From positions 1 through 33,643 of the forward strand of contig PEAG01000038.1 in NCBI GenBank assembly GCA_002753505.1: a stretch of DNA of 33,643 bases, in the 5' to 3' direction. The translations under genes and the position numbers were made by a program. Shown here piece after piece: positions 1 to 33,643 of this stretch. The DNA comes from Magnetococcales bacterium HCHbin5 (GTDB lineage: Bacteria; Pseudomonadota; Magnetococcia; Magnetococcales; Magnetaquicoccaceae). The notes below the pieces were generated by a model. That model was not told the origin of the DNA. It saw only the letters and a list, made by a program, of their open reading frames with translations, and ran no database searches. How positions within the stretch are numbered: position 1 is the stretch's first letter; every line of letters begins with the position of its first letter.

Positions 1-48
1 GCGCGCTGCGCCCATTTGCTGCGCAAATGGGCTTCTGGGAAAGCGCGC
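1..48. repeat. Repeat module B: cruciform hairpin, left window edge
   Basis: An outer stem GCGCGCT (1-7) pairs with AGCGCGC (41-47). Inside it lies a perfect 10-bp stem, GCCCATTTGC (10-19) with GCAAATGGGC (23-32), closed by a 3-nt loop (TGC; GCA on the other strand). The same architecture with different stem bases recurs at 25077-25126, 25332-25390 and 33592-33642. The window begins inside this copy, so its true left end is not visible. It contains no coding sequence. Confidence 0.85.
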
Positions 49-56
49 CCATTACA

Positions 57-231
57 TGCAGGGGCTTTGCCCCTGCACCCCACCGGGGACCGTGACGGTC
101 CCCGGACCCCTGCAATAGTTTTAAAAGATTAAGAAAAGCATGGGTATCGTCATCATGTTGGCGCATATGGGGCTTTGCCCCTGCACCCCACCGGGGAGCG
201 TCACGCTCCCCGGACCCCTGCAACTGTTTTA
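57..231. repeat. Two copies of repeat module A, 108-bp period
   Basis: Copy 1 spans about 57-124 and copy 2 about 169-231. Each holds a hairpin around a GGGGC-TTT-GCCCC core, complete in copy 1 (57-77), and then a second hairpin. In copy 1 the second stem is CCGGGGACCG/CGGTCCCCGG (83-92 with 96-105, loop TGA). In copy 2 it is CCGGGGAGCG/CGCTCCCCGG (loop TCA), so one C-G pair has become G-C on both arms. Both end with ACCCCTGCAA and a GTTTTA tail. A 45-nt AT-richer linker separates them. The second copy ends about 28 nt before the gene at 260, so it could lie in that gene's leader. Confidence 0.85.
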
Positions 232-259
232 GAAACAAACAGCAGCGGAAGGATCCCTG

Positions 260-931
260 ATGCACAAAAAATTGATCGGCCTGTCGCTACTGCTGGCAGC
301 CATCCTGTCGGCACTGCACTACCGGGCCGCCATCGACCCTGCCCAACTGGCCGCCTGGATGGGAGAGCAGGAACAACTGGGCATGCTCTGGTTTGTCGGC
401 CTGTACGCCCTCTCCACACTGCTTTTTCTGCCCGGTTCACTGCTGACTCTGGCGGGGGGAGCCCTGTTTGGTCCCTGGCTGGGAGGTGGGTTGAGCCTGC
501 TGGGTGCCACCCTGGGTGCCGGTTGCGCTTTCCTGATCGCCCGCCACCTCGCCGCCACATGGGTGCAACAACGGGCCGCCGGCATCGGGCAACGGCTGCT
601 GGATGGGGTGGAGACGGAGGGGTGGCGTTTTGTCGCCTTCGTGCGACTGGTGCCCCTCTTTCCCTTCAACCTGCTCAATTATGCCCTGGGCCTCACCCGC
701 ATCCGCTTTGACCACTACCTGCTGACCTCCCTGCTCTGCATGGCCCCCGGCGGCTTTGCCTATGCCTGGCTGGGCCACGCCGGTCGGGAAGCCGCCAGCG
801 GCAGCACCCAGGCTGTGCAGGCGGGCCTGTGGGCTGTGGGGCTGTTGGCAGTGGTCATGATCATACCCCGCTGGATCAAACGGGCCCGAGCGGACAACAG
901 ATGGGTCAAGCAGAGTGCTGGTCCGGATTGA
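260..931 (+). CDS. TVP38/TMEM64 family (SNARE-associated/DedA-like) membrane protein
   Basis: A 223-residue polytopic inner-membrane protein of the TVP38/TMEM64 family, whose members are thought to act as lipid scramblases or transporters; the substrate is not known here. Visible family traits are an N-terminal membrane segment (about 5-22), the re-entrant-like stretch LFLPGSLLTLAGGALFGPWLGGG cut short as 'LFLPGSLLTLAGGALFG' near residues 54-70, and the second signature FVRLVPLFPFNLLNYALG around 128-145. A hydrophobic C-terminal helix (about 187-202) is followed by a basic tail. The ATG at 260 is preceded by GGAAGGAT at good spacing. The gene stands alone after the repeats and runs 26 bp into the 3' end of the convergent regulator gene. 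Family assignment is firm; function is not. Confidence 0.9.
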   Translation: MHKKLIGLSLLLAAILSALHYRAAIDPAQLAAWMGEQEQLGMLWFVGLYALSTLLFLPGSLLTLAGGALFGPWLGGGLSLLGATLGAGCAFLIARHLAATWVQQRAAGIGQRLLDGVETEGWRFVAFVRLVPLFPFNLLNYALGLTRIRFDHYLLTSLLCMAPGGFAYAWLGHAGREAASGSTQAVQAGLWAVGLLAVVMIIPRWIKRARADNRWVKQSAGPD

Positions 932-2267
932 ACAGCCAATAGGCATTGCGACCGCTCCGTTTGGCGATATACATGGCATGATCGGCGTTGCGGAGCAACT
1001 CCTCCCGATCCGTCCCATCGGCGGGATAAAAGGTGATCCCAATGCTGCCGGATATGCTGACCTCCTGACCGGAGAGCAAAAACGGGGTCGCCAACTGTTT
1101 CAACACATTTTCGGCCACCCGAACGGTACTGGGAACATCAGCCACATCAAACAAAACCATCGTAAACTCATCCCCACCCAGTCGTGCCACGGTATCGCTT
1201 TTTCGTACACAGGATTTCATGCGGCGCGCGGCCTGTTGCAGCAGATCATCCCCCGCCTCGTGGCCCAGATTGTCATTGACCCACTTGAAACGATCCAGAT
1301 CGATGAACAACAGAGCCAATAATTTTTGTTGCCGGCCCGCCACCGCCAGATTTTCATCCAAACGTGTCAAAAACAGGTTGCGGTTGGGCAGGTCGGTCAA
1401 CAGATCAAAATGGGCCTGATAACGGATACGCTCTTCCGCCTGTTTGCGCTCGGTAATATCACGAATCACGGCGGCATAATGCACCGTCCCATCCGTTTGC
1501 CAGGTGGCGAGAGAGATTTCCATGGGAAATTGTTCGCCATTTTTTCGTACCCCCACCATCTCCAGTATTTTATCGGTCAGAACCCCCTGGGATACCCCTT
1601 CCGGGGCAAGGATGTGCCGGCGGGGGCGCAGGCGAAAAAACATGCGGGCGTATTGAGACAGGTACTCTTTTGGAACCAGCAGGCTGATGGGGCGGTCAAA
1701 CACTTCAAACTCTTTATAACCAAAAACGTTTTCCGCCCCCCGGTTCCAGAAGTGGATCATGCCATCCGGGCAGAAGGAGACAATCGCCTCGGATATGGAC
1801 TGGGTGACCATCCGAAAACGGTGTTCGCTTTCGATCAGGGCCTGTTGGGCAAGTCGGTGTTTGAGACGTTGCAAATAACCCTCCCCGTGGTAACGCAGGC
1901 GGGCCAGCATCTCCACCGCATCCGGCAATTTAACCAGATAGTCGTTGGCTCCATCCCGAAACGCCTGGGCCTTGCACTCTGCGTCGGACTGGGATGACAA
2001 CAGGATGATGGGAATATGGGCAAAGCGTTGCAGGCTCCGAAACTGTTTGAGCAGAGTCAGACCGTCCAGTTCAGGCATGATAAAATCCAACAAGATCACG
2101 GTCGGATCCTCTTTCTCCGCCAACTGGATCGCGGCACAGGGGTCGGTACAGCTGTACAGCAGCATGTCCGGCTCCTGGGAAATCATCCGTTTCAGCAAAT
2201 GGCCGGTGAGAGGCTGGTCATCCACCAACAGGATTCGGATCGTTTTGGAGGGGGACTGGGATTCCAT
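906..2267 (-). CDS. Response regulator with PAS and GGDEF domains (probable diguanylate cyclase)
   Basis: A 453-residue cytoplasmic protein predicted to make cyclic di-GMP on phosphorylation. The receiver domain (about 9-125) has the acid pair D16-D17, phospho-acceptor D61 in LLDFIMP and K113. A PAS domain follows (about 147-275, with the PAC-like end AAVIRDITERKQ). The GGDEF domain (about 283-450) carries an intact RLGGDEF active site (GGDEF 364-368) and, five residues upstream, an RxxD inhibitory site (R355-D358), so the enzyme is probably active and product-inhibited. No EAL domain and no membrane helix are seen. A TTG at 2327 would add 20 residues, but the ATG at 2267 starts just before the receiver fold and is preferred. 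No partner kinase is adjacent. Confidence 0.92.
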   Translation of the reverse strand: MESQSPSKTIRILLVDDQPLTGHLLKRMISQEPDMLLYSCTDPCAAIQLAEKEDPTVILLDFIMPELDGLTLLKQFRSLQRFAHIPIILLSSQSDAECKAQAFRDGANDYLVKLPDAVEMLARLRYHGEGYLQRLKHRLAQQALIESEHRFRMVTQSISEAIVSFCPDGMIHFWNRGAENVFGYKEFEVFDRPISLLVPKEYLSQYARMFFRLRPRRHILAPEGVSQGVLTDKILEMVGVRKNGEQFPMEISLATWQTDGTVHYAAVIRDITERKQAEERIRYQAHFDLLTDLPNRNLFLTRLDENLAVAGRQQKLLALLFIDLDRFKWVNDNLGHEAGDDLLQQAARRMKSCVRKSDTVARLGGDEFTMVLFDVADVPSTVRVAENVLKQLATPFLLSGQEVSISGSIGITFYPADGTDREELLRNADHAMYIAKRSGRNAYWLFNPDQHSA

Positions 2268-2425
2268 GGCAGACTCTATTAATCCGATTGGCCTCTGTTG
2301 GGTGTGTTCAGTGGAGATGCCGGGCAAAACGGGCTCTGAAAAAAGCCGACACAGGCCCAGGTTGATGATGCCAGAAACAACAGAAACAGGTCAAGTCATT
2401 CCGCGTCGGGACTTTTTTCCTGTTC

Positions 2426-2456
2426 CTGCTGTTCCAAATATCATCTGGAACAGCAG
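2426..2456 (-). terminator. Strong stem-loop after tcdA
   Basis: An 11-bp perfect stem, CTGCTGTTCCA (2426-2436) with TGGAACAGCAG (2446-2456), and a 9-nt loop. It starts 13 nt past the tcdA stop. No clear U-run follows on the minus strand, so it may be a transcript-end or processing hairpin rather than a classical intrinsic terminator. Confidence 0.5.
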
Positions 2457-2468
2457 ATCATGAGCATG

Positions 2469-3209
2469 TCAGCGCATAGGGGACAGCACGCCACGAATCA
2501 CCACCCCCGCCAGGGTCATGCCGAAAAGGGCGGGGAGATAACTGATGGTACCGTTGACCACCCGACCGCGCCCCTGGGCCATCTCCTCCAATGGCGCATG
2601 TGGCAGCGGCTCCTCTGTGGACCAGACGGCGATCACCCCCAGACCGCAACCCCGTCGGCGCAGTCGGCCCCGCACCGCCCGTGCCAGGGGACAGAGCCGG
2701 GTCTCCATCACATCACTCACCACGATGCGGCTGGGATCCAACCGTCCCCCTGCCCCCATGCTGCTGGCAACCGGCCAACCCCGGGCACGGGCCTCCAGTA
2801 TCAGGGCCACTTTGCAATTGAGGGAGTCAATGGCATCCAGCACCCAATCAGGTGCAGTACGATCCAACAGGGCGGGGATGCTCTCCGGGGTGATAAACTG
2901 GTCAACCCACTCCAACTGGCAGTGGGGATTGATGGCCGCCAGGCGGGCAGCCATGACCGCCCCCTTTTTTTGACCCAGACTCTCCCCGGTGGCAGGCAAT
3001 TGCCGGTTAAGGTTGGAGGGGGCCACCCGGTCGTCGTCAACCAATGTGATGCGGCCAATGCCGGCCCGCCCCAACGCTTCGGCAGCAAAACTGCCCACAC
3101 CGCCCACCCCAGCCACTAAAACATGGGCCTGTTGCAACCGTCGGATCCCCGCCTCCCCCACCAGTATCCGGGTCCGTTCATACAATCCATCCTGCCCTGC
3201 TGCCGGCAT
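2469..3209 (-). CDS. tcdA: tRNA threonylcarbamoyladenosine dehydratase TcdA (CsdL/YgdL-type E1-like enzyme)
   Basis: A 246-residue member of the ThiF/MoeB/HesA superfamily. TcdA uses ATP to cyclise N6-threonylcarbamoyladenosine at position 37 of ANN-decoding tRNAs. The nucleotide-binding loop GVGGVG is at 34-39, followed by VDDDRVAPSNLNRQ, the typical E1-like acidic/Asn-Arg motif, and DAIDSLNCK. Length is a little below that of the E. coli protein (268). The start is chosen as ATG 3209 because it overlaps the TGA of the upstream hydrolase (TGATG); a GTG at 3212 is one codon earlier. The two genes form a two-gene operon by translational coupling. A sulfur-carrier adenylyltransferase such as MoeB or ThiF is less likely because the TcdA-like middle region is present. 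Confidence 0.88.
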   Translation of the reverse strand: MPAAGQDGLYERTRILVGEAGIRRLQQAHVLVAGVGGVGSFAAEALGRAGIGRITLVDDDRVAPSNLNRQLPATGESLGQKKGAVMAARLAAINPHCQLEWVDQFITPESIPALLDRTAPDWVLDAIDSLNCKVALILEARARGWPVASSMGAGGRLDPSRIVVSDVMETRLCPLARAVRGRLRRRGCGLGVIAVWSTEEPLPHAPLEEMAQGRGRVVNGTISYLPALFGMTLAGVVIRGVLSPMR

Positions 3210-3976
3210 CACTCTGCCCTCCGCAAATCGGCCAAACCCAATGTCGCCCGGGCGTTATGGGTGGTCGTTTCCACGATACGCGCCTGAGATACCTGCCGCA
3301 ACGCCGCCAACGCCTGCACCACCAGCGGCAGATGACAGGGTTCATTGCGCTCCCCACGGTGGCCGACCGGCGGCAGATCGGGGGCATCACTCTCCAGTAC
3401 CAAAGCCTCTTCCGGCACCTCGCGCGCCATCTGGCGAATCCGCACCGCCGCCTCGTGGGTCACAACCCCTCCCATGCCCAGGCGAAATCCCATCGCCAGA
3501 TAGCGATGGGCCTGCTGCACACTGCCATTGAACGCATGAACGATGCCACCACAGGAAAAGGCGGTCCGCTGCAACAAGGCCAACACCGGCTCATGGCATT
3601 TTCGCACATGGAGCAAAACGGGCAATCGGGCCTCACGGGCCAGATCGAGCTGTGCTGCAAACAATTTTTGCTGCCTCTCCTGGTTGGGCGCAGTGGCATC
3701 CAGGCCAATCTCCCCCAACGCAACAGGCTGAATGCGCGCCACCCACTGCGCCAACTGACCGATTCCATCGTCGGGATGATCGTGGATAAAAAGGGGATGC
3801 AGCCCCAAAGCAACGTGAAGCTCCGGCGTGCGCAACGCCACCAGAGCGGGAAAGTGGGCCAATGAAAGGGCGGGGACCACCCACTGCACCACGCCCGCCT
3901 GGCGACTGCGTTCCATGACAGCCGCCCGATCCTCGTCAAAAACGGCCAGATCCAGATGACAATGGGTATCGATCAC
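3209..3976 (-). CDS. tatD: TatD family metal-dependent hydrolase (DNase)
   Basis: A 255-residue TIM-barrel hydrolase of the TatD family, which includes Mg-dependent 3'-5' exonucleases involved in DNA repair and quality control. Metal-ligand motifs are visible in order: DTHCHLD (H5, H7), GEIGLD (E89), LLHVRK (H123), IVHAFNG (H147) and ESDAPDL (D197). Length fits the family. The only start in frame is GTG 3976, because a TGA lies just upstream; GGTGA sits close before it. It is the first gene of a pair with tcdA. The family contains several paralogues (TatD, YcfH, YjjV) that cannot be separated by eye, so the symbol is at family level. Confidence 0.88.
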   Translation of the reverse strand: MIDTHCHLDLAVFDEDRAAVMERSRQAGVVQWVVPALSLAHFPALVALRTPELHVALGLHPLFIHDHPDDGIGQLAQWVARIQPVALGEIGLDATAPNQERQQKLFAAQLDLAREARLPVLLHVRKCHEPVLALLQRTAFSCGGIVHAFNGSVQQAHRYLAMGFRLGMGGVVTHEAAVRIRQMAREVPEEALVLESDAPDLPPVGHRGERNEPCHLPLVVQALAALRQVSQARIVETTTHNARATLGLADLRRAE

Positions 3977-4137
3977 TGCTCACCATCCATGCCAGAATAT
4001 TCTCCTGCCAATAGGCAGCTGGGGGAAAAATTGTTAAATTAAGGGGGCGCACTGGATGCAACAGTGTGATAGCATGTGACAAGCCCTGGGTCGGAAAGCC
4101 ATTTACCAATCATATTTATACAGGAAACTTGACAGTT
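3977..4137. other. Divergent intergenic region between tatD and the TIGR03032-type gene
   Basis: Promoters for both directions should lie in these 161 bp. An AT-rich stretch at about 4101-4121 could hold a -10 element for the rightward gene, but no convincing -35 box is seen. AGGAAA at 4122-4127 serves as its ribosome-binding site. Confidence 0.4.
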
Positions 4138-5214
4138 ATGGAACAAACCGCCACCACGCCAACGCCCCCTTCCCTGGAAATGACCACCTCCCGCCAGATG
4201 CTCTCCTGGATGGCGGAACAGAACCTCTCCATTGCGTTGACCACCTATCAAATCGGCAAACTGTTTTTTCTGGGCCTGAAACCCAGTCAGGAGCTCTCCG
4301 TTTTTGAGCGTACCTTCAACCGTTGCATGGGTCTGTGTGCCACCGGCAACGGCCTTTTCATGAGTACACTGTACCAGATTTGGCGATTTGAAAATATTTT
4401 TGAGGCGGGACAGCAACAGGATGGCTTTGACCGCCTCTATCTGCCCCAGGTAGGCTATACCACGGGAGATCTGGATATTCATGACATGGCCGTGGATGGA
4501 GAGGGCCGCCTGCTGTTTATCAACACTCTCTTTGGCTGTCTGGCCACCCTGAGCGAAACCCACAGCTTCAAACCCCTCTGGCACCCCCCCTTTCTCAGCA
4601 AACTGGCGGCCGAAGACCGCTGTCACATGAACGGTCTGGCCATGAAAGAGGGACGCGCCACCTATGTCACCGCCGTCAGCGAGTCGGATGTGGCCGATGG
4701 TTGGCGGGAACATCGGGCGAATGGGGGCATTGTGATCGATATTGCCCGCAATGAGATTGTCCTGCGTGGACTCTCCATGCCCCACTCTCCCCGTTGGCAT
4801 AACGGCAAGCTCTGGCTGTTAAACTCCGGTACCGGGGAGTTTGGCTACGCGGACCTGGAGGCCGGACGTTTTGAACCGGTCTGTTTTTGTCCCGGTTATC
4901 TGCGTGGCTTGAGCCTGCATGGAGACTTTGCACTGGTCGGACTCTCCAAACCCCGCCACAACAAAACCTTTACCGGCCTGCCCCTGGACGATCGACTGCG
5001 CAACCACAAGGCAGAGCCCCGTTGCGGTATCCATGTCATCGACCTGCGAACAGGCGATGCCCCGCACTGGCTGCGGTTTGAAGGCATTGTGGACGAACTG
5101 TATGACGTCGTGGTCTTGCCCCGGGTGCGGCGTCCCATGGCCCTGGGATTCAAAACCGATGAGATCCGTCGGGTGCTGAGCGTCGAAGCCTGGACGGGCA
5201 ACCAGCCCCTCTAG
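4138..5214 (+). CDS. TIGR03032 family protein (function unknown)
   Basis: A 358-residue soluble protein that I recognise as TIGR03032-like from conserved blocks such as ATGNGLFMSTLYQIWRFEN (about 65-83), DIHDMAVD (about 115-122), CHMNGLAM, the SMPHSPRWHNGKLWLLNSGTG segment (cited in part: SMPHSPRWHNGKLWLLNSG) and FCPGYLRGLSLHGDFALVG. The repeated short strands with Gly and Trp suggest a beta-propeller-like fold; that part is inference. No signal peptide or membrane helix is present. The ATG at 4138 has AGGAAA 11 nt upstream and is preferred over the GTG at 4066, whose extra residues do not resemble the family. It lies 120 bp before, and on the same strand as, a sugar-nucleotide activating enzyme, which suggests a link to surface glycan synthesis. 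That link is unproven. Confidence 0.75.
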   Translation: MEQTATTPTPPSLEMTTSRQMLSWMAEQNLSIALTTYQIGKLFFLGLKPSQELSVFERTFNRCMGLCATGNGLFMSTLYQIWRFENIFEAGQQQDGFDRLYLPQVGYTTGDLDIHDMAVDGEGRLLFINTLFGCLATLSETHSFKPLWHPPFLSKLAAEDRCHMNGLAMKEGRATYVTAVSESDVADGWREHRANGGIVIDIARNEIVLRGLSMPHSPRWHNGKLWLLNSGTGEFGYADLEAGRFEPVCFCPGYLRGLSLHGDFALVGLSKPRHNKTFTGLPLDDRLRNHKAEPRCGIHVIDLRTGDAPHWLRFEGIVDELYDVVVLPRVRRPMALGFKTDEIRRVLSVEAWTGNQPL

Positions 5215-5255
5215 TCTTCAACCCTCCTGATCGGACAGCCAACCTGTCACAGGCC

Positions 5256-5278
5256 CCAGGGGAGTGCCTCTCCCCTGG
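5256..5278 (+). terminator. Candidate terminator or attenuator hairpin
   Basis: An 8-bp stem CCAGGGGA/TCCCCTGG with a 7-nt loop lies 41 nt after the TIGR03032-type gene and 56 nt before the next gene. A pyrimidine-rich TCTCTTCTCTC follows instead of a clean U-run, so termination may be partial. Confidence 0.45.
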
Positions 5279-5334
5279 AGGATCTCTTCTCTCACCGCAA
5301 ACCTGTTTTCTGCATCAGCCAGGGAGTATCCAGT

Positions 5335-6393
5335 ATGAACAGACAAAAAGATTGGCGATCCGTCTTGATCCACCAGGAAGCCACCATTCTGGAGACCATT
5401 CAGGTTCTGGACAGGGGAGGTCTGCGGATTGCCCTGGTTGTGGATGAGGCATACCACCTGCTGGGTGTGGTCACAGATGGCAATGTGCGCCGCGGTCTGC
5501 TGAATCAGATTGGTCTCCAGGAACCGGTCAGCAAAATCATGACCGCCCATCCGATTACGGTGCAGGCCACCGACTCCCGGGAACATGTGTTGTCGCTGAT
5601 GAAAGCCAGCCAGATTGAACACATTCCGGTGCTGGATGACCAGGGTATCCTGATCGGCCTGGAGGTATTACAGGCGTTGACCCAACCGACAGCCAAGGAG
5701 AACCCGGTTGTCCTGATGGCGGGGGGACTGGGCAGTCGCCTGGGGGTTTTGACCGAAAATTGCCCCAAGCCACTGCTTCAGGTTGGTCCCAAACCTATCC
5801 TGGAGGTTATCCTTGAAAGCTTTCTGGAACATGGGTTTAACCGTTTTTATTTTTCTGTCAACTATAAAAAACATATGATCCAGGAGTATTTTGGTGACGG
5901 TTCGGCCTGGGGTGCCGAGATCCGCTACCTGGAAGAGACGGAGCGGATGGGAACAGCCGGCTCCCTCTCCCTGCTGCCGGAACCGCCGCAGTTGCCTTTT
6001 TTTGTGATGAACGGCGACCTGCTGACCCGCATCAACTTTCAACACATCCTGAACTTTCATGCCAAGCACCAGGCCCAGGCCACCCTCTGTGTGCGTCGAG
6101 TGGAGCAGACCATTCCCTTTGGGGTAGTGGAGATGGCGCAGCACCGGCTGCTCAAGATAGAGGAAAAACCGACCCAACACTATTTTGTCAATGCGGGTAT
6201 CTATCTCCTGGACCCCGTTTTACTGTCACTGATACCAGCCCAGCAACCGCTGGATATGCCGGATCTGTTTCGACAGGCGATCGAGCAGGGTTATGCAACC
6301 GCCGCCTTTCCCTTTTTGGATTATTGGATAGATATTGGTCAGATGGGAGATTATGACCGCGCCCAACGGGAGTATACCCAAATATACAAATAG
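5335..6393 (+). CDS. CBS-domain nucleotidyltransferase (PtmE/LegF-like sugar-1-phosphate nucleotidylyltransferase)
   Basis: A 352-residue cytoplasmic enzyme with two CBS motifs (about 12-60 and 66-115) fused to an NTP-transferase domain (about 124-350). The nucleotide-binding signature LMAGGLGSRL is at 127-136, the KP pair at 145-146, and a metal-binding NGDLLT motif follows near residue 225. This architecture is that of PtmE-type enzymes, described in Campylobacter as making GDP-glucosamine for legionaminic acid; related enzymes activate mannose or heptose. The exact sugar cannot be read from the sequence. CBS domains normally sense adenine nucleotides. GGGAG is placed 8 nt before ATG 5335. 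No other nonulosonate gene is in the window, so the pathway context is missing. Confidence 0.85.
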   Translation: MNRQKDWRSVLIHQEATILETIQVLDRGGLRIALVVDEAYHLLGVVTDGNVRRGLLNQIGLQEPVSKIMTAHPITVQATDSREHVLSLMKASQIEHIPVLDDQGILIGLEVLQALTQPTAKENPVVLMAGGLGSRLGVLTENCPKPLLQVGPKPILEVILESFLEHGFNRFYFSVNYKKHMIQEYFGDGSAWGAEIRYLEETERMGTAGSLSLLPEPPQLPFFVMNGDLLTRINFQHILNFHAKHQAQATLCVRRVEQTIPFGVVEMAQHRLLKIEEKPTQHYFVNAGIYLLDPVLLSLIPAQQPLDMPDLFRQAIEQGYATAAFPFLDYWIDIGQMGDYDRAQREYTQIYK

Positions 6394-6438
6394 CTGTCTT
6401 GCGATCGCACGCCTGCCATTGTTTGACAATGCGCCGGA

Positions 6439-11738: not shown

Positions 11739-11745
11739 GTTTGCC

Positions 11746-12016: not shown

Positions 12017-12279
12017 ATATTCTCTTCCTGCACGAACCCAACAGGAGTGGCTCCAGAGCTGCCCACGCCATTTTTCTCGAATTTTGTAACCGGACCGGCT
12101 GTGACGAGGGAGAGCAGACTACCGGGTCAGTGTATCTCTTTGCTGGGTGGAATGCCACCAGATTCGCCCTTATGCAAAAATGGGCTTTGGGAACACACGC
12201 ATTGCAGCAGGGGTTCCTGTACCCGAATGGGGACCGTGACGGTCCCCAAAACCATCAACAAAACAAAAAATCGGGCTGC
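12017..12279. other. Intergenic region between rlmD and the DUF4160 gene
   Basis: These 263 bp hold a decayed repeat copy (12165-12256) and presumably the leftward promoter of the DUF4160/DUF2442 pair, for which I see no clear boxes. Confidence 0.5.
12165..12256. repeat. Decayed copy of the intergenic repeat (modules A and B)
   Basis: GGGGACCGTGACGGTCCCC (12229-12247) is a perfect copy of the second module-A hairpin. The first hairpin is eroded to CAGGGGTTCCTGTA. The adjacent module B has lost part of one arm (GCCCTTATGCA against AAAAATGGGC). It lies 24 nt past the rlmD stop, so the surviving hairpin may end rlmD transcripts. Confidence 0.7.
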
Positions 12280-20258: not shown

Positions 20259-20265
20259 TGACCTG

Positions 20266-21066: not shown

Positions 21067-21135
21067 CTTTGATCTGCACCATAGCCAACGGTGCCCCCTG
21101 AGTTTTTTCCGCGTTTATTGCCGACCGGCATCCCC

Positions 21136-21163: not shown

Positions 21164-21229
21164 AAAGCATGCCGACACATCAGGACTCCCGGCGCAACCA
21201 GCCGATGCGAGAGCCTCCCGTGTGCCATT

Positions 21230-24818: not shown

Positions 24819-24895
24819 ATCCCGCCCAAAAAATAGAACAAAATTTGCCCCACATGCACGACAACACCCGTGCTCTCTTTTTCTTTTTTACTTTT

Positions 24896-24959
24896 AAAAC
24901 GATTGCAGGGGCCTGGGGAGCGTCACGGTCCCCAGTGGGGTGCAGGGGCAAAGCCCCAT
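24896..24959. repeat. Repeat module A with an uncompensated stem mismatch
   Basis: Same order as other copies, in the opposite orientation to 57-231. The second hairpin reads CTGGGGAGCG-TCA-CGGTCCCCAG, where one G faces G. Other copies have either C-G or G-C at this pair, so this one looks like a single-mutation intermediate. Confidence 0.8.
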
Positions 24960-25003
24960 AATGCACCAGGCATGATAATCACACCCATGCGTTCTCTAAT
25001 CCC

Positions 25004-25463
25004 TTAAAACGATTGCAGGGGCCTGGGGACCGTCACGGTCCCCAGTGGGGTGCAGGGGCAAAGCCCCTGCATGTAACGGGCGCGCTTTCACCGAAGCAAA
25101 TTTCCGCAGGAAATTTGCGCAGCGCGCCCAAAACGCCCCGCAGGGGCACTCCTGGAGGGCGGCAGCCCGACCGAGAGCGGGCAACATGTCGAACGGTTTG
25201 GAAAAAAACCATTCCTGGCCTTGTATCAAACAAAAGGCGAAACACCCGAAAGATTTGGTTTCTTATCCAAGCATTGTCAATGACATAATCGTGCGAGTCG
25301 GGCTGCCGCCCTCCCAAGGTCGCCCCTGCGGGGCGGTTTTGTGCGCGTTGCGCCAATTTTCTGCGAAAATTGGCTTTGGGAAAACGCGCAATTCATGCAG
25401 GGGCTCCGCCCCTGCACCCCGCTGGGGACCGTGACGGTCCCCAGACCCCTGCAATTGTTTTAG
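25004..25463. repeat. Inverted pair of full-length repeats (A-B-C modules) around a 125-bp core
   Basis: The left arm (25004-25171) and right arm (25297-25463) are imperfect reverse complements over about 165 bp. From the outer ends inward each has a TAAAAC-type tail, module A, module B (25077-25126 and 25332-25390) and module C, which contains GCCCC-GCA-GGGGC and GGGCGGCAGCCC hairpins. The core (25172-25296) is more AT-rich, unrelated to the repeat, and has no credible ORF. The layout is like a non-autonomous element with long terminal inverted repeats, or two copies inserted head to head. Confidence 0.8.
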
Positions 25464-25525
25464 AAATTATATAGTGCGGGGCTCGGTGACAATCCCCGGA
25501 GTCAGGCTATATGTCTGCACGGAAA

Positions 25526-26551: not shown

Positions 26552-26573
26552 CCAGGCAATAATACAGCATCCA

Positions 26574-27240
26574 TTACAGGGGGACGGCCAGACCGATAAA
26601 AAAACGGACGGCCGCCGACATGATGGGGGCCAGCAGTTGACCCAGCAGGCCGGAAAAGGCGAGCAACAGCACGATGGCCAGGCCATACCGCTCCAACCCG
26701 GCCAGGCTTCGATCCAGCGGGTGGTGCAGCAGAGCCGTGGCCATCCGTCCACCATCCAGCGGAGGCAGGGGAAACAGATTGAACACCCCCAGGATCACAT
26801 TCATTTTGATGGCCGCCACCAGCATCTCCACCAGCAGCATGGGAGGATCTCCGCCGCTGCTGCTGATCAGCAGTCGCAGGGATCCCCCGGCCAGCAGAGC
26901 CAGCAAAAAATTGACCAACGGACCCGCAAAAGCGACCCAGAACAGGGCCAGACGCAACGCCATGCCGCTGCGGCGAAACTGGTTGGGATTGATGGGAACC
27001 GGCTTGGCACTGCCAAAGATGAAGGGTGTACCAACGGTCATCAAGGAGGTGGCCAGCATCAGGCCGGGCACCAGCAAGGTCATGATGGGATCGATATGGG
27101 GCAGAGGGTTGAGGGTCAACCGTCCCATGCGGGCCGGGGTGGTGTCGCCGTAGCGGGAGGCGGCAAAACCGTGGGCCCACTCATGCAGGGTGATGGCGAA
27201 CAGGACGCCGGGAGCCCAGACCAGAATGGTGTGCAGCATA

Positions 27241-27248
<8 letters not shown>
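26574..27248 (-). CDS. Site-2 protease family zinc metallopeptidase (M50)
   Basis: A 224-residue intramembrane protease-like protein with about five or six helices. The zinc motif HEWAH is at 22-26 and the third ligand D165 is in FPLPPLDGGR (159-168). There is no PDZ domain, which places it in the short S2P group seen next to trpS in many bacteria; the substrates of this group are mostly unknown. ATG 27248 overlaps the lolD-like stop by 8 nt; ATG 27272 and ATG 27239 are alternatives. The gap to trpS is 22 nt. Confidence 0.9.
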
Positions 27249-27930
<682 letters not shown>

Positions 27931-28227
27931 GGATAACGCCTCATAGGGCCCCAGGTTGCAGGCCATTGGGGTGCTGTTGTCTGGGTGGTCAACCAAAAGG
28001 GGCCATTTTGCGGAGTTGTGGACAGAAAAGCAAGCTCCAATCGGTCAGCCTAGACCATGGAGGGCAAGTAATCGCGTGCATTTTGCTGCCATAGCGGAGA
28101 GAACCACCCGCCCGTAACCGATTCTGAAGCCCAAGCCATGCCGCTCCAAAAACCCAGTGGCAATGTGGCACGGAATCGGCTACAGTGAAGGAAGGTTTAC
28201 AGACCTTCCCTGGAGGAAAAGTTTGCC
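27931..28227. other. Divergent intergenic region between the lolD-like and DUF1640-like genes
   Basis: This 297-bp stretch should carry promoters for both directions. Rightward, TGGCACG at 28166-28172 with GC ten bases after its GG resembles a sigma-54 -24/-12 site, although the -12 box is poor. A 7-bp hairpin (GGAAGGT/ACCTTCC, 28190-28209) ends just before the GGAGGAAA ribosome-binding site. No credible ORF. Confidence 0.4.
28166..28181 (+). promoter_or_regulatory. Weak sigma-54-like promoter candidate
   Basis: TGGCACG matches the -24 element fully and GG-N10-GC spacing is right, but the -12 element reads CGGCT instead of TTGCW. It is 47 nt before the DUF1640-like start. Confidence 0.25.
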
Positions 28228-28755
28228 ATGAGCGTTGCCGTCACCTTTGACACCCATAAGTTTATCAAACAGATGGTTGCAACCGGCTTTACGGAGGAAC
28301 AGGCCGAAATACAGGTGCGCCTGCTCTCCGAAATATTGGATACCCAGCTCTCCACCAAGGCGGACATGGCCAAGCTGGATGCCAACATGCTGGAACTGAA
28401 ACGTGATATCCGAGAGATTGATGCCAAAGTGGAGTTGACCAAGGCAGTCCTGCAAAAAGAGATCGAGGCGGTCAGATTGGGACTGCAAAAAGAGATCGAG
28501 GCGGTCAGGACAGGCATGCAAAAGGATCTCGAGTCTACAAGGCTTGAATTTCAGAGGGATATTGTCTCGGTCAAAAAGGATATCGAATCAGCCAAGCTGG
28601 ACACCATCAAATGGACCGCAGGCATGTTTGCCGCCCAAACGGCGTTGATTATCGGTGTCCTGTTTACCTTCACGATAAAGACAAGCACACCCAGCCTGCC
28701 ACCACCTCCCTATCAGCCATCCCAGGAGATGCGACTGCCATCCCCCACTCCTTGA
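28228..28755 (+). CDS. DUF1640/CCDC90-like coiled-coil protein with C-terminal membrane anchor
   Basis: A 175-residue protein. The N-terminal FDTHKFIKQMVATGFTEEQA (7-26) is the typical start of the DUF1640/CCDC90 family, whose mitochondrial relatives include MCUR1. A long charged coiled coil spans about 28-125, a single membrane helix about 131-150, and a Pro/Ser-rich tail ends the chain. Within the coil LQKEIEAVR occurs twice 11 residues apart (75-83, 86-94), with a weaker third copy (MQKDLEST). GGAGGAAA is placed well before ATG 28228. The bacterial function is unknown; relatives form oligomeric membrane-anchored stalks. Confidence 0.8.
   Translation: MSVAVTFDTHKFIKQMVATGFTEEQAEIQVRLLSEILDTQLSTKADMAKLDANMLELKRDIREIDAKVELTKAVLQKEIEAVRLGLQKEIEAVRTGMQKDLESTRLEFQRDIVSVKKDIESAKLDTIKWTAGMFAAQTALIIGVLFTFTIKTSTPSLPPPPYQPSQEMRLPSPTP
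28450..28530 (+). repeat. 33-bp tandem repeat inside the coiled-coil gene
   Basis: A 26-bp block that begins CTGCAAAAAGAGATC is identical at 28450-28475 and 28483-28508, one 33-bp period apart. A degenerate third copy starts near 28516. Each unit encodes 11 residues, so copy-number change would keep the frame and the coiled coil. Confidence 0.85.
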
Positions 28756-28836
28756 ACGGGAACAGAGTCGATGGAGAGAGAGGAAAGGCGCGGCCCGCCA
28801 GACACTCCGATCCAGTGAAACAATGGCAAGCGTGGA

Positions 28837-30198
28837 TCAAATCGTCGCCACCTGCCCCACCAGATCATATTCGTGACTCTCCGTGATGGTCACCGGCACA
28901 ATGGTACCCGGTCGGGGTTGGCCGGCGTTGATGTAGACCAGACCATCCACCTCCGGGGCCTGCCCCGCCGTGCGCCCCACCATCAAACCCTCATGCGCCT
29001 CCGAAACCCCATCCACCAAAACCGGCAACGTCCTGCCCAACTGCTGCTTCAACTTTTTGCGACTGATCCGCTGCTGCAACAACATCAGAGCCTGCTGACG
29101 TCGGCGCGCCTTCTTGGCAGAGACCTTGTCCGGCAACAGACAGGCCGCCGTCCCCTGCTCGTCCGAATAGGTAAAGACACCCACATGGTCAAACCAACCC
29201 TGCGCCACCAGCCGATACAAATGGCGAAACTCCTTCTTCGTCTCGCCCGGAAACCCGACGATAAAGGTGGTGCGCACAACCGCCTCCGGCAACTGCTGGC
29301 GAATCTGCTGCAACAACCGCACAATCCCCTCCGCCCGCTCGACCCGCTTCATCCGCGCCAAAACCGCTGAATGGCTGTGCTGCAAAGGGATATCCAAATA
29401 GGGCAACACCTTCTCCTCACTCCCCATCACCGCCAACAACTCAGGCGTGATCAGGGTGGGATAGAGATACAAAGCCCGAATCCAACGAATCCCCTCCAAC
29501 CGCGCCAAACGACGCAACAGGGCCGCCAACGAAAACCGCGGCTCCAGATCCCGCCCATACAAGGTGGTATCCTGGGAGACCAGATTGATCTCCACCACCC
29601 CCTGACGGCTGAGCTGGATCACCTCCGCCTCGATCTCCGCCGGCGTCCGGGAGCGGAAACGACCCCGCAACTGGGGAATAATGCAAAACGCACACGGATT
29701 GTTGCACCCCTCGGCAATCTTGACATAAGCCGTATGCGAGGGCGTGGTCAACACACGATCCCCCTCCTCGTCCGCCGCTGCCACCCCCGACGACAACGGC
29801 TCCACCTCCCACGCCGCCTCACCCGTGCGCTGATTGGCCTCGATCAGCGGAATCAGCCGCTCATACTGGGCCGAACCCACCAGGACATCGATCTCCGGCA
29901 ACTCCTGCGCCAACGCCGCCCCATACCGCTGGGAAAGACAGCCGGTAACCACCAACCGCTTGCCCGGATGACGGGCCTTGATCTCCCCCATCGCCGCAAT
30001 GGCCTCCCGGGACTCTGCCTCCGCATCCGCCTTGAAACCACAGGTGTTGACCACCAACAGATCCGCCGCCTCGGGATCAGCGGTCAGGCGATAACCCTGC
30101 TGCAAAAACCGCCCCAGCATCTTCTCGGTATCCACCAGGTTTTTGGGACACCCCAAAGAGATCACCCCCACCCGCTTGCCTGAACCCTCTTCCGCCAT
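28837..30198 (-). CDS. rimO: Ribosomal protein S12 methylthiotransferase RimO
   Basis: A 453-residue radical-SAM methylthiotransferase that modifies Asp89 of ribosomal protein S12. The N-terminal cluster cysteines are C17 (SLGCPKNLVD), C53 and C87; the radical-SAM cysteines are C165, C169, C172 (CNNPCAFCIIP). A TRAM domain closes the chain (VDGLVYIN, PGTIVPVTITESHEYDLVG). The SLGCPKN start and RimO-type LRGRFRSR mark it as RimO rather than MiaB. It starts 6 nt after yajQ and is the last gene of lolA-yajQ-rimO. Confidence 0.96.
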   Translation of the reverse strand: MAEEGSGKRVGVISLGCPKNLVDTEKMLGRFLQQGYRLTADPEAADLLVVNTCGFKADAEAESREAIAAMGEIKARHPGKRLVVTGCLSQRYGAALAQELPEIDVLVGSAQYERLIPLIEANQRTGEAAWEVEPLSSGVAAADEEGDRVLTTPSHTAYVKIAEGCNNPCAFCIIPQLRGRFRSRTPAEIEAEVIQLSRQGVVEINLVSQDTTLYGRDLEPRFSLAALLRRLARLEGIRWIRALYLYPTLITPELLAVMGSEEKVLPYLDIPLQHSHSAVLARMKRVERAEGIVRLLQQIRQQLPEAVVRTTFIVGFPGETKKEFRHLYRLVAQGWFDHVGVFTYSDEQGTAACLLPDKVSAKKARRRQQALMLLQQRISRKKLKQQLGRTLPVLVDGVSEAHEGLMVGRTAGQAPEVDGLVYINAGQPRPGTIVPVTITESHEYDLVGQVATI

Positions 30199-30204
30199 GG
30201 CCAG

Positions 30205-30693
30205 TTATTCCCGGAAATTGGTAAATTGCAACGGCATCTCCACCGTCGGATCCGCCTTGATCAAGGCGATGGCCTCCTGCAAATCATCCCGCTTTTTGCC
30301 CGTCACCCGCAACTCGCTCCCCTGAATGGCCGCCTGCACCTTGATCTTGGACTCCTTCAACAACTTGACCAGTTTGCGCGCCAAGTCGGCCTCAATGCCC
30401 TGCTGCACCGTCACCAACTGCCGCACCATCCCCCCCGAAGCCGGCTCCACGGTGCCAAAAGAGAGTACCCGAACATCCACCTTGCGGCGCACCATCTTCT
30501 CCTTCAACATCTCAACAACCTGCTCCAACTTGTACTCGTCATCGGCATGGATGGTAATCTCCGCCTCCTTGCGCACCACCTTGCTCTTGGATCCCTTGAA
30601 ATCATAGCGCGTGGTGATCTCCTTGCTCACTTGGTTGACAGCATTGTCCACCTCCTGGAGATCGGTTTCAGAAACAATATCAAAAGAGGGCAT
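30205..30693 (-). CDS. yajQ: YajQ family nucleotide-binding protein
   Basis: A 162-residue protein of the YajQ (UPF0234) family with two ferredoxin-like domains. Family motifs are MPSFDIVSE at the start, the ITTRYDFKGSKSKV block (about 25-38) and LVKLLKESKIKVQAAIQGSELRV (in part). In Xanthomonas and Pseudomonas, YajQ-family proteins bind cyclic di-GMP and act on transcription factors; other work links them to tRNA or nucleotide binding. ATG 30693 is supported by AAGGAG 8 nt upstream. It lies between lolA and rimO. A diguanylate cyclase is also in the window, but no direct link is shown. Confidence 0.93.
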   Translation of the reverse strand: MPSFDIVSETDLQEVDNAVNQVSKEITTRYDFKGSKSKVVRKEAEITIHADDEYKLEQVVEMLKEKMVRRKVDVRVLSFGTVEPASGGMVRQLVTVQQGIEADLARKLVKLLKESKIKVQAAIQGSELRVTGKKRDDLQEAIALIKADPTVEMPLQFTNFRE

Positions 30694-30733
30694 GGGCAAC
30701 TCCTTGGGCTTGAGAGTGGAACACAATTTTACA

Positions 30734-31426
30734 TCAAGGGGCGTCCGACGACTGGGACTGCTCTTCAATCACATCCACATGGGCAGGTATCTCAAATTGG
30801 AAGCGACCGCTCCCAATGGGCTGGTTGATGCGCATGTGTTCAAAAGTGAAATGGGATACGTGCCCCAGCGAGTCGCGGGTCGTCAACTTTAGCAGTTCAT
30901 CCCGATGGGGATCCAGAACCAACTCGATCTCTTTGATACTCCCCTCTTTTTTCGGCAACAGATGGACCACGGGCAGATGCAGCTGCGGATCTTCCGTCGT
31001 CCGCCAACTGAAAACGGTGTGCAAAGGCAGATCGGAGGATAACAGTACCGCCGGCGTATTATCCAGACGTTTGGCCTTGCCCACCGTCACCTGCGCCAGA
31101 TCCGGCTCGTAAAACCAGATGGTCTGACCATCCGATACGATGGTCTGCTGGTTCGGCGTCTGATAGTCCCACCGAAACCGACCCGGTTTGGCCGTGGAGA
31201 TGTGACCCCTGCTCTCGGCAGGCAGACCCGACTCCGGTTGCTCGATCCGTTGCACAAAATCGGCCTCCAGCGTCTTGACGGTCAACAAAAAGTTTTGTAA
31301 CCGTTTGACAGCATCCGGCAACGAAACCTGCTCTGCCGTCCAACCCCAAAGAGGCAGACAACACAACAGCCAAAACAATCCATGGCCCAGGTATGCGTGA
31401 TATTTAACAGGGGGGTGATATGGCAT
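30734..31426 (-). CDS. lolA: Outer-membrane lipoprotein carrier protein LolA
   Basis: A 230-residue periplasmic chaperone that takes lipoproteins from LolCDE to the outer membrane. A signal peptide (about 10-31) precedes the typical beginning VKTLEADFVQRIEQPE (about 50-65), then SRGHISTAKPGRFRWDYQTP, IVSDGQTIWFYEPDLAQVTV and a final strand with GSGRFQFEIP. The start is ATG 31426 with AGAAGAG upstream. It heads lolA-yajQ-rimO. A second LolA-like protein is encoded at 20266-21066 and a LolD-like ATPase at 27241, but the lol genes are dispersed here. Confidence 0.92.
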   Translation of the reverse strand: MPYHPPVKYHAYLGHGLFWLLCCLPLWGWTAEQVSLPDAVKRLQNFLLTVKTLEADFVQRIEQPESGLPAESRGHISTAKPGRFRWDYQTPNQQTIVSDGQTIWFYEPDLAQVTVGKAKRLDNTPAVLLSSDLPLHTVFSWRTTEDPQLHLPVVHLLPKKEGSIKEIELVLDPHRDELLKLTTRDSLGHVSHFTFEHMRINQPIGSGRFQFEIPAHVDVIEEQSQSSDAP

Positions 31427-31859
31427 GGCTCTTCTATCCCACTCGACAAATCAATCCGTTTCTCGCTGCTCTGTTCGCATCACCATCGTGAAAACAGCAC
31501 CCGGTGGGACAATGGGGGATTTTTCCAAAGGAGGCAAGGGAGATTTGTCGCCTCCCACGAAATGGCCCCCACCATGACCCCAAAAATCACCTTTTCACCA
31601 CAATCCTGCCCTGAAACAACCCGGGCCCGCCGCAACAAAACAGGGCATCAATCATACTATCTACATGTATTTTATATGATAAAAAATTTGTCAAGCAAAA
31701 AATACAATTCGGTACTTTGAAAAGGTTTTCGAGTGCCGGAAACTGTATTATGATAGGACGATGTGTTGTCACCATTGGCTAACTTGTGTCACCATTGGCT
31801 ATCTTGATCGGTGTGGTGTCGGCAAGGAATGCCTCTTTCTGCTGCCAAGGGAGAAGTGG
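31427..31859. other. Divergent intergenic region between lolA and the Hpt gene
   Basis: These 433 bp carry a GGAGGC/GCCTCC hairpin (31530-31555), a notably AT-rich stretch (about 31650-31755) that should hold promoters (TATGAT at 31749-31754 is a -10 candidate with a poor -35), and the 20-bp direct repeat. A short plus-strand ORF (31382-31720) shows no family features and no good ribosome-binding site, so it is not called. Confidence 0.5.
31767..31806 (+). repeat. Two adjacent 20-bp direct repeats upstream of the Hpt gene
   Basis: TGTCACCATTGGCTA(A/T)CTTG occurs at 31767-31786 and again at 31787-31806 with one mismatch and no gap. It lies 54 nt before the Hpt start, just downstream of the AT-rich putative promoter. 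This is a good place for an operator with cooperative binding, or a recent small duplication. Confidence 0.8.
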
Positions 31860-32171
31860 ATGGATGAGGATACCGAAAAACTAGTTATCCATGTAGATCC
31901 CGACCTGGAAGAGATTGTCCCGCCCTACCTGAGCAATCGCCAGAAGGACGTGAAGCTGATTGAGACCATGGTTGAACAGCAAGACTTTGAATCCATCAGG
32001 GTGTTGGGCCACCGCATGAAGGGATCGGGGGCAGGGTATGGGTTCGATTTTATCAGTCAGGTGGGACGCGAATTGGAGCAGGCAGCCAAGGAGGAACGCC
32101 CAACGGAAATTATCGCACAGATGGCTGCGTTGGCGGCCTATCTCGGGCGCATTGATGTCCGCTACACGTAA
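31860..32171 (+). CDS. Histidine phosphotransfer (Hpt) domain protein
   Basis: A 103-residue stand-alone Hpt domain. The phospho-accepting histidine is H51 in VLGHRMKGSGAGYGF, the classical HxxKGxxxxxG motif. Before it, DLEEIVPPYLSNRQKDVKL is the first helix typical of the group. It shuttles phosphate between a hybrid kinase and a response regulator. ATG 31860 follows GGGAG at 7-9 nt; the longer frame to 31761 translates the direct repeats and is not accepted. It is 39 nt before an OmpR-type regulator on the same strand. No kinase is in the window. Confidence 0.93.
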   Translation: MDEDTEKLVIHVDPDLEEIVPPYLSNRQKDVKLIETMVEQQDFESIRVLGHRMKGSGAGYGFDFISQVGRELEQAAKEERPTEIIAQMAALAAYLGRIDVRYT

Positions 32172-32210
32172 AGAAACGACCCATGCAACCACTATCTGCT
32201 GGAAGTTGTC

Positions 32211-32954
32211 ATGCCCGATCTTGATCATATTTTAATTGTCGATGACGATCCTGAAGTATGCAAACTGGTTACTCTTTTTTTCGGAAAAAACGGTTTTCGG
32301 GTCACAACCGTCGCCGATGGCAAAGGGATGACGCACCTCTTGAATCAGGATCCGGTCGATCTGATTGTCCTGGATCTGATGCTGCCGGATGAAGATGGCC
32401 TGGTTCTCTGCCGCAACCTGCGCGCCTCCTCCAATATCCCCGTCATCATTGTCAGTGCCAGGGGCGAGGATCTGGACCGCATCATCGGCCTGGAGATGGG
32501 GGCCGACGACTATCTGCCCAAGCCCTTTCATCCCCGGGAGTTGTTGGCGCGGGTGCGCAGCGTGCTGCGTCGAGCCCGCGCCTCTAACCAGTCGAACAGG
32601 GCCATCACAGCAGGAGAGGATGATTATGTCTACCATTTTGCCGGCTGGAGGCTGGATCTGCCCACCCGGCAACTCTACTCCCCCCAGGAGGAAAAGGTTT
32701 TCCTGAGCGGCAGTGAATTTGCCATGCTGCGTATTTTCCTTAGCTTTCCCAACCAGGTACTCTCCAGAGAGCAGTTGCTGGAACACTCCTACGGCAAGGA
32801 GAACGAACCCTACGATCGCACCATCGACATGCAGATCAGTCGCCTGCGCCGCCGTCTGCGCGAAGACCCCAAAACGCCTGAGCTGATCAAAACGGTCCGT
32901 GGCATGGGGTATGTTTTATCTGCCCGGGTGGAAAAAAGCGGAGTGGACTCGTGA
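32211..32954 (+). CDS. OmpR/PhoB-family response regulator
   Basis: A 247-residue DNA-binding response regulator. The receiver domain has D11-D12, phospho-acceptor D55 (VLDLMLPDEDG) and K104 (LPKPF). The winged-helix output domain (about 140-240) shows LSGSEFAMLRIFLSFPNQVLSREQLLEHSYG (in part) and RTIDMQISRLRRRLREDP, ending with TVRGMGYVL, all typical. GGAAG lies before ATG 32211. It overlaps the next regulator by 4 nt (GTGA) and follows the Hpt gene, so the three are one operon. Target genes are unknown. Confidence 0.95.
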   Translation: MPDLDHILIVDDDPEVCKLVTLFFGKNGFRVTTVADGKGMTHLLNQDPVDLIVLDLMLPDEDGLVLCRNLRASSNIPVIIVSARGEDLDRIIGLEMGADDYLPKPFHPRELLARVRSVLRRARASNQSNRAITAGEDDYVYHFAGWRLDLPTRQLYSPQEEKVFLSGSEFAMLRIFLSFPNQVLSREQLLEHSYGKENEPYDRTIDMQISRLRRRLREDPKTPELIKTVRGMGYVLSARVEKSGVDS

Positions 32955-33370
32955 CCAACATCCTGGTGATCGATGACGATTCAACCATTCGTTTTCTGCT
33001 CAAGGCCATTCTGGAACAGGCGGGTTACCATGTGCTCTGTGCCAGCGGCGGGGATGAGGGGCTGCAGCTTTTCCGTGCCCATACCATTGAGTTGGTCATC
33101 ACCGACATCTTGATGCCGGGAACCGATGGGTTGGCCGTCATTCGAGAGCTGCTCGCCTCCGATCCGGAGACCAAAATTATTGCCCTCTCTGGTGGCGGCA
33201 TGGTCTTGACGGCAGAGATCAGCCTGCATGTCGCCCGCAGAATGGGAGCCTTTGAATCGTTGGCAAAACCGTTTACACGGGACGAACTGCTGGCTATGGT
33301 CCATCGCATTCTCCAGGCGTCTGAACTCTCGACAGGTGAAGCCTTGCAGGATGCCCTGCCCCTTCCTTGA
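32951..33370 (+). CDS. Single-domain (CheY-like) response regulator
   Basis: A 139-residue receiver domain with no output domain. Key residues are D8-D9-D10, phospho-acceptor D52 (ITDILMPGTDG) and K106 (LAKPF); the GGGM after the switch Ser differs from classical CheY. The start is GTG 32951, which overlaps the previous stop. Likely roles are a phosphate sink or relay in a phosphorelay with the Hpt protein. The last 20 residues are outside the domain. Downstream only repeats are visible. Confidence 0.92.
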   Translation: MTNILVIDDDSTIRFLLKAILEQAGYHVLCASGGDEGLQLFRAHTIELVITDILMPGTDGLAVIRELLASDPETKIIALSGGGMVLTAEISLHVARRMGAFESLAKPFTRDELLAMVHRILQASELSTGEALQDALPLP

Positions 33371-33378
33371 GGCCCGGC

Positions 33379-33643
33379 GGCGTGCAGGGGCAAAGCCCCA
33401 TATACGCTAACGTGATTGCGATCTTCTTTTGAACGATTGCAGGGGTCCGGGGACCGTCACGGTCCCCGGCGGGGTGCAGGGGCAGAGCCCCATATGCGCT
33501 AACGTGGTTGCGATCTTCTTTTGAACGATTGCAGGGGTCTGGGGACCGTCACGGTCCCCAGTGGGGTGCAGGGGCAAAGCCCCTGCATGAACGGCGCGTT
33601 TTCCCAAAGCAAATTTTCGCAGAAAATTTGCGCAACGCGCCCA
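33379..33643. repeat. Tandem repeat array, 92-bp period, with a terminal module B
   Basis: GTGCAGGGGCA occurs at 33382, 33474 and 33566, exactly 92 bp apart. Each unit holds module A hairpins and a linker with CTAACGTG and GATCTTCTTTTGAACGATTG. After the last unit module B follows (inner stem GCAAATTTTC/GAAAATTTGC, loop GCA; outer GGCGCGTT/AACGCGCC) up to the window edge. It begins 9 nt after the last gene and could end its transcript. Confidence 0.85.

What the first reader, a model, noticed from the sequence alone, without database searches (positions are those of the whole stretch)
1..33643. Intergenic hairpin repeat family with compensatory base changes
Module B occurs in four clear copies. 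In one orientation the inner 10-bp stems are GCAAATTTTC/GAAAATTTGC (33.6 kb), GCAAATTTCC/GGAAATTTGC (25.09 kb), GCCAATTTTC/GAAAATTGGC (25.35 kb) and GCCCATTTGC/GCAAATGGGC (position 10, complement). Every change on one arm is matched on the other, while the loop GCA is constant. Outer stems do the same (GCGCGTT/AACGCGC against GCGCGCT/AGCGCGC). In module A one pair is C-G in most copies and G-C in the 169-231 copy. The copy at 24896-24959 has an uncompensated mismatch and that at 12165 is decayed. This covariation suggests selection on the folded form: a structured RNA, or single-strand DNA hairpins recognised by a transposase (REP/RAYT-like).
Basis: seen in the sequence. Interest (0 to 1): 0.72.

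Follow-up and report, generated by a model that had tools for sequence, protein, structure and literature searches.

The report
Mirrored hairpin repeats in Magnetococcales DNA
A bacterium that appears to belong to the Magnetococcales carries roughly 240 copies of a large palindromic repeat built of small hairpins whose paired bases, including one unusual contact outside the stems, change together in many members of its order, which suggests that the folded shape of the DNA itself is being kept.

Summary
Modules A and B are parts of one larger unit: (A)n-B-C-D, an AT-rich middle, then D'-C'-B'-(A')m. The window has one whole unit (24893-25462) and two cut by the contig ends. The genome has 482 D arms, so roughly 240 units. 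The nearest named relative is a Magnetococcales bacterium. A model of the five-hairpin half-unit matches 41 of 48 genomes of the order (some distant matches are A-only), with both-side changes in 43 of 45 pairs.

Stem covariation alone could come from template switching. A second signal is harder to explain so: in hairpin A2 the base before the leading G-tract matches the middle base of the triloop (T-A 132, C-G 45, other 4; 26 genomes), and tract lengths match at 176 of 201 sites. I read this as selection on a local, triplex-like fold.

In this genome no stem cell is G-T (0 of 2,767), so DNA fits better than RNA. RAYT is not supported.

Best reading: a non-autonomous family of structured intergenic DNA repeats, probably mobile; enzyme unknown.

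The parts
1..60 (+). Module B arm of a unit cut by the contig start: outer GCGCGC stem with one-sided bulge, inner hairpin GCCCATTTGC-TGC-GCAAATGGGC
61..125 (+). Module A: hairpins A2 (GCAGGGGC-TTT-GCCCCTGC) and A1 (GGGGACCGTGACGGTCCCC)
169..231 (+). Second module A of the same array, A1 allele GAGCGTCACGCTC (compensated)
12126..12254 (+). Decayed half-unit (B and A1 remnants)
   Evidence: 25.1 bits, E 5.8e-5
24893..24957 (-). Outer module A of the left arm, A1 with one uncompensated pair
25004..25067 (-). Inner module A of the left arm
25068..25130 (-). Module B of the left arm, inner hairpin GCAAATTTCC-GCA-GGAAATTTGC
25131..25171 (-). Hairpins C and D of the left arm
25172..25296 (.). AT-rich middle, 125 nt; no reading frame is open in all 31 copies compared
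25297..25339 (+). Hairpins D' and C' of the right arm
25340..25399 (+). Module B' of the right arm, inner hairpin GCCAATTTTC-TGC-GAAAATTGGC
   Evidence: read
25400..25462 (+). Module A' of the right arm
33373..33399 (-). Partial module A (A2)
33432..33491 (-). Module A
33524..33583 (-). Module A
33584..33643 (-). Module B of a unit cut by the contig end, inner hairpin GCAAATTTTC-GCA-GAAAATTTGC
   Evidence: read

Best explanation
A family of non-coding, intergenic, mosaic palindromic DNA elements, amplified to roughly 240 units in this genome and widespread in its order. Each half-unit is a string of five hairpins (D, C, B, A2, A1); two half-units face each other around a fast-changing middle. 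What is maintained is local folding within each arm, most likely in DNA that is single-stranded for a while (replication, transcription or a nicked intermediate). In A2 the leading G-tract appears to lie along the G-C stem as a third strand, with the base before it paired to the middle base of the triloop. Shown here: architecture, copy number, covariation in the order, matching within arms, presence or absence at one orthologous site. Inferred: spread as non-autonomous mobile DNA by an unidentified trans-acting enzyme; the triplex-like fold; DNA rather than RNA.
For: 482 D arms in 4.19 Mb, control pattern 0 and 0; the first 100 places listed are 46 minus/plus pairs 142-378 nt apart and 8 singles. 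R1 matches in 41 of 48 genomes and 14 of 17 genera. Covariation. 0 G-T cells, 8 mismatches. Arms differ by 0.053-0.056 per site, the middle by 0.199. Y-R rule 177 of 181, of which 58 of 60 in other genomes; 55 of 55 equal-tract copies from other genomes. Equal tract lengths at 176 of 201 sites. A2 middle base and its partner match within arms 59 of 59, while the two arms of a unit carry the same A2 type in only 13 of 30 units. TyrRS/pseudouridine-synthase gap: whole unit in G000, A-only in G004, none in G001, G002, G003. Two units 2.6 kb apart share 602 nt at 98.8% with different flanks.
Against: No target-site duplication in 26 of 30 units testable and no sharp outer end. No enzyme linked to the family. 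The two near-identical copies could be gene conversion, and the one orthologous site could be a loss in relatives whose TyrRS is only 70-80% identical. Copies share ancestry, so cell counts are not independent; only 8 of the 46 pairs vary among the 61 half-units. Distant matches (L153, L162, L163 as read) are A-only, and in L161 the two matches face the other way. In one search further pair types do not exceed shuffles (21 against 21.7). The triplex rests on one base contact and tract lengths; in many copies the linker can also pair with bases after the stem, which would compete.
Confidence: 0.5

Rival explanations
1. Mutational upkeep without function: template switching at quasipalindromes copies one stem strand onto the other, so stems stay perfect and change in compensated steps; units multiply by ectopic recombination.
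For: Few one-sided intermediates (17 one-sided cells against 354 both-sided; 0 G-T) are what templated correction would leave. PMC8794818 (abstract and start of introduction) reports such patterns for RNA genes.
Against: It does not predict the Y-R match between a base outside the inverted repeat and a loop base, equal tract lengths, or arms about 3.6 times less diverged than the middle.
Confidence: 0.2
2. REP/REPIN-like element moved by a RAYT (Y1 transposase).
For: Palindromic, intergenic, high copy; one 224-aa Y1 gene in the genome.
Against: 13 of 41 genomes with R1 matches have no Y1 hit and 5 of 7 without R1 have one. Of 13 Y1 loci of the genus, 2 have a clear R1 match some 800 bases from the gene and one (L135) a marginal one, E 0.055. 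No GTAG in 61 half-units; its reverse complement in 2, inside loops.
Confidence: 0.07
3. Structured RNA or 3'-end element: units act as bidirectional transcript ends or mRNA stabilisers.
For: Between genes by simple ORF calling: 9 convergent, 13 co-directional, 3 divergent of 25 placed. Very stable fold as RNA too (z -23.8).
Against: No G-U-type pair in this genome's stems, about 2% order-wide (my tally), against 8 of 93 pairs in four tRNAs (small control). Rfam finds nothing. No T-run directly after A1 in the units read.
Confidence: 0.15
4. Long palindrome acting as a whole (cruciform or 200-bp hairpin) rather than local hairpins.
For: The window's unit folds as one long hairpin (DNA z -24.6).
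Against: The two arms of a unit agree at variable sites at or below chance, while each arm is matched inside.
Confidence: 0.05

Closest known systems
REP / BIME / REPIN repeats with RAYT transposases (PMC3733652 passages; PMC2817692 passages; PMC3116915 listing only)
   Same: High-copy intergenic palindromes, compensated stem changes, arranged in inverted pairs and mosaics
   Different: No GTAG head and no terminal CGTC tag in the half-units tested; five hairpins per arm and units of several hundred bases against 20-40 bp REPs; no RAYT link found
Intrastrand triplex motif TM_ECO (PMC4666352: abstract, sections 15, 16, 17 and passages)
   Same: G/C-rich hairpin plus an extra G-tract able to act as third strand; high copy in some genomes; that paper shows triplex folding in vitro by CD and NMR
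   Different: Third strand is 5' of the hairpin here (order Pu-Pu-Py, there Py-Pu-Pu); tract 3-5 against 9; a capping base contact, which I did not meet in the sections read there
Modular intergenic repeats such as BOX or Correia elements, and MITEs (recalled, no paper read)
   Same: Modular, non-coding, repeated modules, probably moved in trans
   Different: No target-site duplication found here; sequence relation not tested
Template-switch hairpins (PMC8794818, abstract and start of introduction)
   Same: Perfect stems kept by compensated multi-base changes
   Different: Does not account for the contact outside the stem

Membership tests
REP/REPIN-RAYT | GTAG tetranucleotide at one end of the palindrome | tested here: not met
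   0 of 61 own and 0 of 4 sibling half-units hold GTAG; CTAC in 2 of 61 own, which by reading are loop variants. Sequence outside A1 was not part of this test.
REP/REPIN-RAYT | RAYT gene flanked by the repeat | tested here: not met
   No R1 match in L009; 2 clear and 1 marginal of 13 genus Y1 loci have one, on one side and at a distance; the 13 overlap in part
REP/REPIN-RAYT | Y1 gene in genomes with the repeat | tested here: not met
   13 of 41 show no Y1 hit; draft genomes, so single absences may be gaps
CGTC-tagged REPs | CGTC at the end of the hairpin | tested here: not met
   GACG in 61 of 61 but at the A1 centre; CGTC in 1 of 61 own and 1 of 4 sibling half-units, not at a hairpin end by position
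MITE | Target-site duplication | tested here: inconclusive
   26 units: mean longest shared flank word 6.27 against 6.25 in mispaired flanks; ends are not sharp, so the test is weak
MITE | Inverted arms, and the same site empty in relatives | tested here: met
   Inverted arms; one site empty in G001, G002, G003; one site only
Intrastrand DNA triplex motif | Three matching tracts in one strand | tested here: met
   Leading and stem G-tracts equal at 176 of 201 sites, lengths 3, 4 and 5
Intrastrand DNA triplex motif | Triplex forms | not testable with these tools
   Needs CD, NMR or probing
Known RNA family | Rfam match | tested here: not met
   No match at gathering score in the window

The most novel reading that the evidence does not exclude
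A new class of mobile or genome-architectural repeat in which natural selection acts on the tertiary structure of DNA: a hairpin whose leading G-tract forms a short intrastrand triplex, capped by a Watson-Crick pair to the triloop, present 690 times in this genome and kept by compensated change in many genomes of a bacterial order.
Probability: 0.3. Interest if true: 0.85.

Novelty: new variant of a known kind. Interest (0 to 1): 0.62.

Why it matters
Base covariation outside stems is standard evidence for RNA tertiary structure. Finding it in repeats that look DNA-level would give evolutionary evidence that a folded DNA form matters in living cells, which PMC4666352 could not show in vivo for its triplex motif (section 17 and a discussion passage). 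The family is also a large natural data set for separating template switching from selection, and its repeats may be why this draft genome is so broken.

Tried and rejected
Rfam scan of the window: nothing. RAYT link: tested by co-occurrence, by neighbourhood and by tag, not supported. Target-site duplication: none seen, weak test. A coding middle: no frame open in all 31 copies; the best is 18 of 31 on the reverse strand, so a short frame in part of the copies is not excluded. Arm-to-arm pairing as the kept feature: not supported. sort arms by position in the locus, not by arm type. Plasmids and phages by blastn with the 395-base core: no match. Viral contigs, two patterns: 0 and 1 match; that one (L189) has A-like hairpins near its edge. 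Paper searches: in the rows listed I saw no title on such repeats in Magnetococcales; 34, 38 and 80 named the group; open library only. The pattern fits the sibling spacing between A1 and A2, so its 3 hits here are no copy number. One search with the looser A2 pattern: 30 of 398 genomes, 22 in the order, 8 of 350 outside; the backwards control hit once each in G048 and G186. By reading, A2-A1-like pairs occur in L190 and L192, outside the order.

Full report
Setting. The window is contig C171 of a 4,188,618-base draft genome in 200 contigs. The nearest named record by its tyrosyl-tRNA synthetase is a Magnetococcales bacterium, isolate nWRX1bin3, at 69% identity; near records may have been withheld, so the order name is an inference. 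Ten window ORFs scanned are ordinary chromosomal genes.

What is there. Matching the modules against 20 fetched stretches shows that they belong to one unit: (A)n-B-C-D - middle - D'-C'-B'-(A')m. One search printed 31 such cores. In those read, the left and right arms are similar but not equal and the order is the same. In the window the whole unit spans 24893-25462; 1-231 and 33373-33643 belong to cut units.

Number. The D arm with up to one mismatch occurs 482 times (240 forward, 242 reverse) against 0 and 0 for the backwards pattern. The first 100 places listed are 46 pairs, always minus then plus, 142 to 378 nt apart, and 8 singles. So there are roughly 240 units; at about 570 bases each (the window's unit) this would be about 3% of the genome, an estimate. 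The A2 motif occurs 690 times.

Spread. A DNA search hits 7 of 7 genomes of the genus, some with few and weak matches. A covariance model of the half-unit (154 positions, 45 pairs, 21 sequences) hits 41 of 48 genomes of the order and 14 of 17 genera at E 0.01. The control is 70 loci of other bacteria, best E 0.83. In fetched loci of G002, G003, G004, G020, G026, G028, G030, G031, G034 and G036 two matches face each other as in the own unit; reading them shows quite different stem sequences. In L161 (G017) they face the other way. Some distant matches are A-only. A pattern for the A1-A2 pair was found in 18 of 398 phylum genomes, all 18 in this order; the looser A2 pattern in 30 of 398, 8 of them outside the order. 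Many order genomes have no exact hit to these patterns.

Covariation in stems. In the 21-sequence alignment 93.3% of cells pair (shuffled 84.0) and 92 cells change on both sides (shuffled 31.9); further pair types do not exceed shuffles (21 against 21.7), and helix A2 is only 74.7% paired because the siblings are shifted by one column. Over 44 distinct rows from the order it is 94.1% against 69.0, 354 cells against 85.7, and 43 of 45 pairs; that alignment was fitted to the structure. In 61 half-units of the own genome there are 2,759 Watson-Crick cells, 0 G-T and 8 mismatches; 8 pairs vary, 7 of them with two or more Watson-Crick types. Order-wide I count 27 G-U-type cells of about 1,458 paired. 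Four tRNAs give 8 G-U in 93 pairs, a small control.

A contact outside the stems. Written on the strand with G-tracts, A2 is Y-GGGG-TNNN-GGGGC-NRA-GCCCC. Y and the middle triloop base are T-A in 132, C-G in 45 and other in 4 of 181 sites in 26 genomes; in other genomes than this one 58 of 60. Among equal-tract sites it is 173 of 176. In the 55 equal-tract copies from other genomes the match is complete, with the highest normalised mutual information of the column pairs compared (raw 0.95 bits; two linker columns reach 0.97); in the 120 own copies the normalised ranking is filled by nearly constant columns and is not informative. Leading and stem tracts are equal at 176 of 201 sites: 158 with 4, 10 with 3, 8 with 5. 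The same motif pattern hits 3 times in 685,324 bases of other bacteria. In one search, whose pattern already demands Y and R and lists at most ten places a genome, 133 of 139 listed rows follow the rule by my count, 12 of 13 outside the order; the exceptions are in G279, G013, G025 (two), G006 and G033. A third G strand parallel to the C strand would put Y next to the loop, so I read a short intrastrand triplex with a capping pair. This is inference. The linker can also extend the Watson-Crick stem, which competes.

Selection or mutation. Arms differ by 0.053-0.056 per site, the middle by 0.199. Within an arm the A2 middle base and its partner match 59 of 59. Between the arms of a unit, sorted by position, agreement is: inner B 1 of 30 (expected 6.0), A2 13 of 30 (17.0), junction 12 of 29 (17.0), A1 16 and 21 of 29 (14.3 and 20.7). 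The low values follow in part from the two arms being different types. So local folds are kept, not arm-to-arm identity. Template switching (PMC8794818, abstract and start of introduction) could keep stems but would not make the Y-R match.

Mobility. The gap between TyrRS and the pseudouridine synthase holds a unit in G000, only A-type hairpins in G004, and no element in G001, G002, G003; G005 has another neighbour and in G006 the match ends with the contig. Two units in L026 share 602 nt at 98.8% with different flanks. No target-site duplication was seen. Of 25 units placed between ORFs, 9 are convergent, 13 co-directional, 3 divergent (simple ORF calling, two flagged as covered by a long ORF).

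RAYT. The genome has one Y1 hit, a 224-aa ORF with Pfam PF01797. No A1 pattern and no R1 match lies in its 3.3-kb locus. In the order 33 of 48 genomes have Y1; 13 of the 41 with R1 do not (G006, G007, G008, G009, G011, G012, G014, G015, G016, G021, G026, G033, G047), and 5 of the 7 without R1 do (G022, G024, G032, G037, G046). Draft gaps weaken single absences.

Verdict. Ordinary in kind (intergenic palindromic repeats), unusual in size, in depth across the order and in the contact outside the stems. Function and enzyme remain open.

Noticed in passing
window 1 and 33643: The contig begins and ends inside repeat units, so the repeats probably contribute to the fragmentation of this draft.
   Followed up: partly
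L015 2178-2536, L017 6322-6771, L025 3527-3787, L026 183-424: The middle of some units has short tandem expansions (AAAGCG-AATA type and others); middles range from 124 to 360 nt.
   Followed up: no
L130 225-1875: In G002 a Y1 gene and a half-unit lie about 800 bases apart, with two small ORFs between that look HicA/HicB-like (recalled, no family search).
   Followed up: partly
L189 1-440: A viral contig carries A2-A1-like hairpins at its edge, perhaps host DNA.
   Followed up: partly
L190, L192: A2-A1-like hairpin pairs in genomes of other orders.
   Followed up: partly
L155 1230-1700: One A1 copy has a GCAA tetraloop in place of the TNA centre (read).
   Followed up: no
window 28450-28515: Two direct 33-nt repeats at 85% identity.
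   Followed up: no
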